Both the position numbers and the translations under genes were made by a program. The notes under the pieces are model-generated. The model saw only the letters and a list, made by a program, of their open reading frames with translations. It searched no databases and was not told where the DNA came from. A stretch of 64,000 nt of DNA from Methanospirillum hungatei (lineage in GTDB: Archaea > Halobacteriota > Methanomicrobia > Methanomicrobiales > Methanospirillaceae), in the NCBI RefSeq assembly GCF_019263745.1, contig NZ_CP077107.1, positions 62,001 to 126,000 on the forward strand. Reading direction: 5' to 3'. Shown piece by piece: positions 20,348 to 21,823 of the stretch; within the stretch, counting starts at the first letter, position 1, and each line of letters begins with the position of its first letter.

Positions 20348-20908
20348 ATGTCTGCAACTCCAGATACTTCGCTCCGGATAGAAAATATCGTGGCATCAGC
20401 GAAGATTTCTGAATCCCTTGACCTCCCTCAAATTGCATCGAGTATAAAAGATGCAGAATATAACAAAAAAAGGTTCCCGGGTGTTGTGATCAGGATGCAG
20501 AATCCAAAGATTGCGGCATTAGTTTTTGGGTCAGGAAAAGTGGTTCTTACCGGGGCAAAAAGTGTTGAAAGCCTGAACAAGGGTCTTGAAATATTAGGTG
20601 ACCTGTTACGTTCTTTGAATATTGAAATTGCGCAGGAACTAACGTATAAAATTCAGAACATTGTCACTTCTGCTGACCTAGGATCAGGAATTAATCTGAA
20701 TAAGATAGCAGTCGGATTTAATCTTGAACGAATTGAGTATGAACCAGAGCAGTTTCCAGGTCTTGTATATCGTCTTGAAGAACCAAAAGTAGTTGTTCTT
20801 CTTTTTGGGTCCGGAAAACTTATCATCACTGGTGGAAAAGAACCCGAAGATGCGAAGAAGGCTGTTCTTAAGATAGTTGACGATTTGAAAGGGCTTGGTC
20901 TATTATAA
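20348..20908 (+). CDS. tbp: TATA-box-binding protein
   Basis: 186 residues with the two pseudo-symmetric repeats of TBP: RIENIVASAKI ... RFPGVVIRMQNPKIAALVFGSGKVVLTGAK, and KIQNIVTSADLG ... QFPGLVYRLEEPKVVVLLFGSGKLIITGGK. The C-terminus lacks the acidic tail seen in some archaeal TBPs. TBP nucleates archaeal transcription at TATA boxes together with TFB. It is preceded by a canonical TATA box and followed by a strong hairpin terminator, so it is a single-gene transcription unit. Confidence 0.97.
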   Translation: MSATPDTSLRIENIVASAKISESLDLPQIASSIKDAEYNKKRFPGVVIRMQNPKIAALVFGSGKVVLTGAKSVESLNKGLEILGDLLRSLNIEIAQELTYKIQNIVTSADLGSGINLNKIAVGFNLERIEYEPEQFPGLVYRLEEPKVVVLLFGSGKLIITGGKEPEDAKKAVLKIVDDLKGLGLL

Positions 20909-20921
20909 CTTGTGGATAATT

Positions 20922-20955
20922 AATCTGAATTTATAATTCAGATTCTATATTTTTA
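20922..20955 (+). terminator. Terminator after the TBP gene
   Basis: A perfect 10-bp inverted repeat (AATCTGAATT / AATTCAGATT, 20922-20931 with 20935-20944, 3-nt loop) is followed by a T-rich run at 20945-20954. It starts 13 nt after the TBP stop codon. Confidence 0.6.
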
Positions 20956-20959
20956 TATA
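20952..20959 (+). promoter_or_regulatory. TATA box of a candidate non-coding RNA
   Basis: TTTATATA follows the TBP terminator. No plus-strand protein gene follows; the predicted start 25-30 nt downstream falls right at the base of the structured region at 20982-21066. Confidence 0.45.
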
Positions 20960-20981
20960 CAATAAAATTTATTGTATTATA

Positions 20982-21066
20982 GTACCGCTATCCGGGGGAT
21001 TTATTGTGTTTTTGTCACAAGGATACGGCGATTTGAATATATCCATGGGGCTCTGGCCTCATGGAA
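20982..21066 (+). ncRNA. Candidate structured small RNA between TBP and rpiA
   Basis: Two helices can be drawn. First: 20985-20987 and 20989-20993 pair with 21026-21028 and 21021-21025 (one bulged C), and inside it TTGTG (21004-21008) pairs with CACAA (21016-21020) around a 7-nt loop. Second: 21042-21051 pairs with 21056-21065, 10 bp around a TCTG loop, including one G-U pair that exists only in the plus-strand transcript. The block is richer in G+C than the AT-rich flanks, has a TATA box at the right distance and T-rich sequence after it (21080-21090). I do not recognise a known RNA family. Confidence 0.4.
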
Positions 21067-21118
21067 AGTAAATTCATAGAATTTTCTCTTACACTCTGAT
21101 CATTGAATCTGATTTTGA

Positions 21119-21823
21119 TTATAATCCGATGATTCTTGGTCCGTTTTCCTCTCCGATTATTACAGTTGTCTTATGTGTAAATTCTGCAAATATTCCGCAA
21201 CAGACTACTCCGGGAATCATATTAATTACTGTCTCCAACTGCATCGGATCCAGGATGGTAATCGGCTGATAGTCTAAAATAATATTACCATTATCTGATA
21301 TAACCGGTCCATCTTTCTTAACACCTTCACGAACCTGAATAGTACCTCCCATTTGGTTGAGACGATTGAGAACATGAGGAAGAGAAAAAGGGACTATCTC
21401 AATGGGGATAGGACCAGTCAGATCTGCACAGAGTTTTGAAGGATCTGCAACAATTATTATTCGTTTTGATGCATCTGCGATGATTCGTTCCCTGACATGG
21501 GCTGCACCTCTGCCTTTGATTAGACGAAGTTCAGAATCTATCTGGTCTGCACCGTCGATGGTGATGTCGATTGTTTGTACCTGTTCAAGGCCAACCAGAG
21601 GAATTCCAAGTGCTCCAGCTCTCATCATGGTCTGAAGAGAAGTGGGTACTCCATATATAGAAAGTCTTTCCGCAGAAATTCGCTCTTTTAGCCTTGCCAT
21701 AGTAAAGGCTACAGTAGAACCTGTTCCAAGTCCAACAATCATCCCATTGGAGATATAATCTGCGGCTTTAAATCCCGCTCGTTGTTTCGCTTTATCTTGT
21801 AGTGATAATTCTGTATTACTCAT
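21119..21823 (-). CDS. rpiA: Ribose-5-phosphate isomerase A
   Basis: 234 residues. Substrate-binding motifs are clear: GLGTGSTVAF near 31-40, TIDGADQID near 88-96, KGRGAAHVRERI near 103-114 (catalytic Glu), and the C-terminal GEENGPRII. It interconverts ribose 5-phosphate and ribulose 5-phosphate, supplying ribose for nucleotides. The start is supported by GAGGAAT in the leader (complement near 21827-21833). It follows surE on the same strand with a 53-nt gap, so they may be cotranscribed. Confidence 0.95.
   Translation of the reverse strand: MSNTELSLQDKAKQRAGFKAADYISNGMIVGLGTGSTVAFTMARLKERISAERLSIYGVPTSLQTMMRAGALGIPLVGLEQVQTIDITIDGADQIDSELRLIKGRGAAHVRERIIADASKRIIIVADPSKLCADLTGPIPIEIVPFSLPHVLNRLNQMGGTIQVREGVKKDGPVISDNGNIILDYQPITILDPMQLETVINMIPGVVCCGIFAEFTHKTTVIIGEENGPRIIGL

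What the first reader, a model, noticed from the sequence alone, without database searches (positions are those of the whole stretch)
20952..21066. Orphan promoter followed by a G+C-rich structured RNA candidate
After the TBP terminator there is a second TATA box (20952-20959); its predicted start falls on the base of a bulged stem (20985-21028), followed by a 10-bp hairpin (21042-21065) whose G-U pair works only in the plus-strand RNA. No protein gene follows. This may be an unannotated small RNA beside the TBP gene.
Basis: partly seen in the sequence, partly recalled or inferred. Interest (0 to 1): 0.6.

Follow-up and report, generated by a model that had tools for sequence, protein, structure and literature searches.

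The report
Conserved orphan small RNA beside tbp
Next to the TATA-binding-protein gene of a Methanospirillum-type methanogen lies a promoter and a roughly 50-base structured RNA that six related species have kept almost unchanged; in sister species the same promoter drives a regulator gene, so it looks like an unannotated small RNA, perhaps an mRNA leader that outlived its gene.

Summary
The TATA box (20952-20959), bulged stem (20985-21028) and 10-bp hairpin (21042-21065) are all present, between tbp (+) and rpiA (-). The promoter and first stem are real and selected: six species of one Methanospirillum clade keep them at the same tbp/rpiA site, one copy per genome, with 25 of 27 core bases invariant while tbp four-fold sites are essentially randomised. 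TATA-to-RNA spacing is 21-23 nt in all six. The second hairpin is not conserved. There is no covariation: the paired bases simply do not change, except one pair lost in two lineages, where the stem instead extends outward.

The new fact is evolutionary. In four outgroup species the same promoter drives an MreA-family winged-helix regulator, with almost no leader. In one species (G010) the RNA is followed by an MreA-like gene whose likely GTG start lies inside the RNA's hairpin, with GGGGG upstream as a plausible Shine-Dalgarno. In the window's species and four others the gene is gone but promoter and RNA remain; G002 and G008 show no change across 85 nt of promoter plus RNA while the flanks differ.

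Best reading: an unannotated, lineage-restricted small RNA, probably the retained leader of a lost regulator gene. Transcription and targets are unproven.

The parts
20348..20908 (+). tbp, TATA-binding protein gene (186 aa), upstream neighbour and synteny anchor
   Evidence: ORF; orthologues 85-99% identical at the same place in relatives
20952..20959 (+). TATA box (TTTATATA) of an orphan promoter; conserved context ATTCTATATTTTTATATAC 20942-20960
   Evidence: also present in the four species where the MreA-type gene follows
20959..20975 (.). AT-rich dyad ACAATA-AAATT-TATTGT between TATA box and predicted start; possible operator, sequence not conserved in G009-G011
   Evidence: sequence and alignment; significance not tested
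20982..20984 (+). predicted transcription start (about 27-28 nt from the TATA centre)
   Evidence: inferred; TATA-to-TACCG spacing 21-23 nt in all six species (from alignments)
20984..21029 (+). conserved small RNA core: ACCGCTATCCGGGGGATTT...GGATACGGC; bulged stem 20985-20993/21021-21028, inner hairpin 21004-21008/21016-21020
20994..21001 (+). invariant unpaired G-rich segment GGGGGATT; Shine-Dalgarno-like in G010 (6-9 nt before GTG GTG)
   Evidence: role inferred
21042..21065 (+). 10-bp hairpin, specific to this genome; possible 3' end structure
   Evidence: absent in relatives
21119..21823 (-). rpiA, ribose-5-phosphate isomerase A, convergent downstream neighbour
   Evidence: ORF; orthologues at the same place; name from sequence features and prior knowledge, not from a family scan here

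Best explanation
A roughly 50-65-nt non-coding RNA is transcribed from its own TATA promoter between tbp and rpiA. Shown: the promoter and RNA core are strongly conserved at one site in six Methanospirillum species and no longer precede a protein gene in five of them. Inferred: the RNA folds as a bulged stem presenting the invariant GGGGGAUU segment unpaired. It arose as, or took over, the 5' leader of an MreA-type regulator gene, where the stem would cage the ribosome-binding site (GGGGG) and GTG start, as still seen in G010. After the gene was lost the leader was kept and works as a free small RNA, most likely by base-pairing or protein binding through the GGGGGAUU segment. No target was found.
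For: Six of 12 genus genomes carry exactly one copy each, always beside tbp, with none in the reversed-pattern control. A covariance model over 232 Methanomicrobiales genomes gives six hits at E 3e-14 to 2e-19 and then nothing before 1e-4. 25 of 27 core bases are invariant across five lineages, against 1 of 31 tbp four-fold sites; tbp four-fold identity is only about 41-55% between lineages. G002 vs G008: 0/85 differences in promoter plus RNA vs 26/162 in the flanks (Fisher P = 1e-5; 0.011 with near flanks only), although neither has the gene. TATA-to-RNA spacing is constant. No shared reading frame or start codon: G002, G008 and G011 have no start where G010 has GTG. G010 keeps RNA plus an intact 138-aa MreA-like ORF; outgroups have the gene without the RNA.
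Against: No transcript data. No compensatory change: 0 pairs with a double change, and 2 of 5 distinct sequences break pair 10-44. Folding energy of the core is near that of shuffles in most species. The inner hairpin is missing in G011. No conserved target: AATCCCCCGGA has 4 non-self copies in G000 against 2.1 expected. With the RNA part alone and near flanks only, the G002/G008 test is not significant (P = 0.11).
Confidence: 0.55

Rival explanations
1. A relic: promoter plus 5' leader of an MreA-type regulator gene lost recently and several times; the leader acted only in cis (translation control of its own gene) and is now a decaying fossil.
For: The gene follows the promoter in four outgroup species and follows the RNA in G010. 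G009, sister of G010 (84/95 support), has lost it, so losses are repeated; G006 has lost gene and promoter. GGGGG and GTG in G010 look like a translation start.
Against: No significant trace of the gene remains downstream in any of the five gene-less species, which argues for old losses, yet the leader is unchanged. G002 and G008 share the gene-less state and still show 0/85 differences.
Confidence: 0.25
2. A DNA element, not an RNA: a regulator binding site (inverted half-sites CCGYTWTCC / GGATACGG) overlapping the start site.
For: The two arms form an inverted repeat as DNA too; conservation is primary-sequence-like without covariation.
Against: Distance between arms varies from 24 to 27 nt, which would rotate the half-sites; the G-rich segment is conserved on one side only; there is no gene for such an operator to control in five species.
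Confidence: 0.1
3. A short translated ORF (leader peptide or small protein).
For: G000, G009 and G010 share an in-frame GTG...TCA CAA GGA TAC GGC.
Against: G002, G008 and G011 have no start codon in that frame, and the frame ends after a few differing codons; third codon positions are conserved as strictly as the others.
Confidence: 0.05
4. Trans-antisense to aRF1 (release factor) mRNA.
For: Three of the best hits outside the genus (G023, G027, G154) are the antisense strand of aRF1 codons NPPENG.
Against: In the species that own the RNA the codons are YYSKPPENG and complementarity is in general no better than at other places of the same locus.
Confidence: 0.01

Closest known systems
Methanoarchaeal intergenic sRNAs of Methanosarcina mazei (for example sRNA154, sRNA162; names from memory)
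   Same: Short intergenic transcript with own archaeal promoter, structured, lineage-restricted.
   Different: No sequence or Rfam relation; no expression or target data here; different order.
MreA-family transcriptional regulator (NCBIfam NF053756; M. acetivorans MA3302)
   Same: An MreA-family gene sits behind the orthologous promoter in four sister species (113.5 bits against a cut-off of 100 for the G004 protein) and an MreA-like gene follows the RNA in G010 (84.1 bits, below cut-off).
   Different: Absent from this site in the window's genome; the RNA itself is not part of that family.
Orphan riboswitches and leader-derived sRNAs (general class)
   Same: Conserved structured leader with ribosome-binding site inside the structure in G010.
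   Different: No ligand, no covariation, one location only, and the gene is missing in five of six species.

Membership tests
Any Rfam 15 family | covariance-model score above gathering threshold | tested here: not met
   No match at gathering for the locus; best permissive match E = 2.7
Archaeal intergenic sRNA | own archaeal promoter with TATA about 27-28 nt upstream of the RNA start | tested here: met
   TTTATATA/TTTAAATA-type box with 21-23 nt spacer in all six species; TATA position about 28 nt upstream stated in PMC8553660 abstract. A sequence match, not a mapped start
Archaeal intergenic sRNA | discrete transcript | not testable with these tools
   no RNA data held
Archaeal intergenic sRNA | sequence conserved without a conserved reading frame | tested here: met
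Structured RNA by covariation | compensatory base-pair changes | tested here: not met
   0 pairs with a change on both sides among 5 distinct sequences; 7 of 8 outer pairs never vary, so there is no power
cis-regulatory leader of an MreA-type gene | regulated gene directly downstream | tested here: not met
   met only in G010; absent in G000, G002, G008, G009, G011
cis-regulatory leader of an MreA-type gene | ribosome-binding site or start codon inside the structure | tested here: inconclusive
   GGGGG and GTG GTG inside the structure in G010; start codon inferred, no proteomics

The most novel reading that the evidence does not exclude
An mRNA leader that outlived its protein gene: the promoter and leader of an MreA-type regulator were kept under selection after repeated loss of the coding sequence and now act as a stand-alone trans-acting small RNA, with G010 preserving the intermediate state.
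Probability: 0.3. Interest if true: 0.6.

Novelty: new member of a known kind. Interest (0 to 1): 0.42.

Why it matters
If transcribed, it adds a conserved small RNA to Methanospirillum, for which the literature search here turned up no described small RNA. The arrangement across species (gene alone, RNA plus gene, RNA alone) would be an unusually clear series for asking how a small RNA can arise from the leader of a lost regulator gene.

Tried and rejected
Rfam at gathering and permissive thresholds: nothing. tRNA scan: nothing at the locus. Viral-contig pattern scan: 16 scattered contigs, not examined further, taken as chance. Weak order-wide CM hits that were read lie inside protein genes such as antisense aRF1 and acs; the aRF1 antisense idea was tested in Methanospirillum and dropped. 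Target scan with AATCCCCCGGA: only about twice expectation in G000 and no shared target among species. Duplex with tbp mRNA: no common site. Remnants of the MreA-type gene downstream in gene-less species looked suggestive by eye but were not above shuffles. In one search the values for G010, G004 and G001 were taken on the wrong strand and are void; G010 was redone. Literature: no paper on small RNAs or mapped starts in Methanospirillum found in the held library.

Full report
Setting. The window lies in a complete 3.39 Mb genome of a Methanospirillum-type archaeon (a genome of the same genus, G011, matches a contig titled Methanospirillum sp. STE_32; G002 has 3,544,738 bases, which from memory is the size of M. 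hungatei JF-1). The finding sits in the 210-base gap between tbp (+, 20348-20908) and rpiA (-, 21119-21823), which converge. No tRNA or Rfam family lies there.

The observation. Every element described is in the sequence at the stated coordinates. Folding alone would not make a case: z = -2.3 for the plus strand, and the minus strand scores better, -4.2; the 50-nt core by itself is near shuffles in most species.

Conservation. A DNA search of 60 relatives found the 5' part of the block 20930-21085 (query positions 1-78 to 1-100) at 83-92% identity in five other genomes of the genus, all at the same tbp/rpiA site. The alignment shows the core TACCGYTWTCCGGGGGATT, a variable insert and then GGATACGG. 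The pattern CCGGGGGATT-N(5-30)-GGATACGG occurs exactly once in each of the six genomes and not in the other six. A covariance model finds those six at E 3e-14 to 2e-19 and nothing credible in the other 226 Methanomicrobiales genomes searched. Across five lineages 25 of 27 core bases are invariant; of 31 tbp four-fold sites comparable in all five, one is. The blocks were chosen after seeing the alignment, so the printed P value is not to be taken literally, but the contrast is large. The second hairpin (21042-21065) has no counterpart in any relative.

Structure. The stem CCG/CGG + UAUCC/GGAUA is kept in G000, G009 and G010. In G002/G008 and G011 the 5' arm is CCGUUUUCC, which breaks one inner pair, but there the stem extends outward (GUACCG/CGGUAC or CGGUAU), giving stems of similar stability (-11.4 to -13.9 kcal/mol). 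There is no compensatory change in the strict sense, and with 7 of 8 outer pairs invariant covariation cannot be tested. The inner hairpin is present in all but G011, with a shifted register in G002/G008.

What follows the promoter. In the four outgroup species G001, G003, G004 and G007 the same promoter block is followed, about 36-40 bases after the TATA box in G003, G004 and G007, by an ORF of about 137 aa (in G001 the match holds one stop). The G004 protein meets the NCBIfam MreA model (113.5 bits, cut-off 100); MreA of M. acetivorans is a global regulator of methanogenic pathways (PMC3600222, PMC12918732). In G010 the RNA comes first and then an MreA-like ORF of 138 aa (84.1 bits, below cut-off; MarR_2 in Pfam). 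Its only suitable upstream start is GTG GTG inside the RNA hairpin, preceded by GGGGG. In G000, G002, G008, G009 and G011 no such ORF follows and no significant remnant is left. G006 has neither promoter, RNA nor gene; in G005 the contig ends inside tbp. On an aRF1 gene tree the RNA-bearing species form one clade with G005 (86/76 support), G009 is sister to G010 (84/95), G006 is outside, and the four gene-only species form the outgroup. If the gene behind the G010 RNA is the same ancestral gene, it was lost at least twice within the clade while promoter and RNA stayed; a later arrival of the gene in G010 is not excluded.

Is the RNA selected after gene loss? G002 and G008 (tbp 97.3% identical) are both gene-less. 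Between them promoter plus RNA has 0 differences in 85 positions, the flanks 26 in 162 (Fisher P = 1e-5); with only the nearest flanks 8 in 112 (P = 0.011); the RNA part alone gives P = 0.11. This favours continued function, with moderate strength for the RNA part itself.

Mechanism. Shown: conservation, position, constant spacing to the TATA box, absence of a shared reading frame. Inferred: transcription from about 20982-20984, folding into a bulged stem that leaves GGGGGAUU unpaired, original role as a translation-control leader, and present role as a free small RNA acting through GGGGGAUU. A search for complementary sites found no excess and no shared target, so a protein partner is equally open.

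Novelty. A lineage-restricted archaeal small RNA candidate is a new member of a known kind. The series gene alone / RNA plus gene / RNA alone is the unusual part; if confirmed it would be a good example of a leader outliving its gene.

Noticed in passing
L005 / G010:C14 54362-54762: MreA-like winged-helix ORF directly behind the RNA, with probable GTG start and GGGGG ribosome-binding site enclosed in the RNA structure; the informative intermediate arrangement.
   Followed up: partly
window 20959-20975: AT-rich dyad ACAATA-N5-TATTGT between TATA box and start; G010 has ACTATAG-N9-CTATAGT at the same place. Possible operator, but AT-rich dyads are easy by chance.
   Followed up: no
G023, G027, G154 (L189, L191, L192): The RNA core resembles the antisense strand of the aRF1 codons NPPENG; coincidence after testing in Methanospirillum.
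   Followed up: yes
G000:C1 555734-556234, 1409822-1410319: Two further tbp paralogues in the window's genome, one of them with an in-frame TAG.
   Followed up: no
L282 (G008:C131) and L289 (G010:C36): AATCCCCCGGA, complementary to the RNA's G-rich segment, sits just behind the start codon of an ORF beginning MEIVKIPRMEK in two species; not among the sites found in G000.
   Followed up: partly
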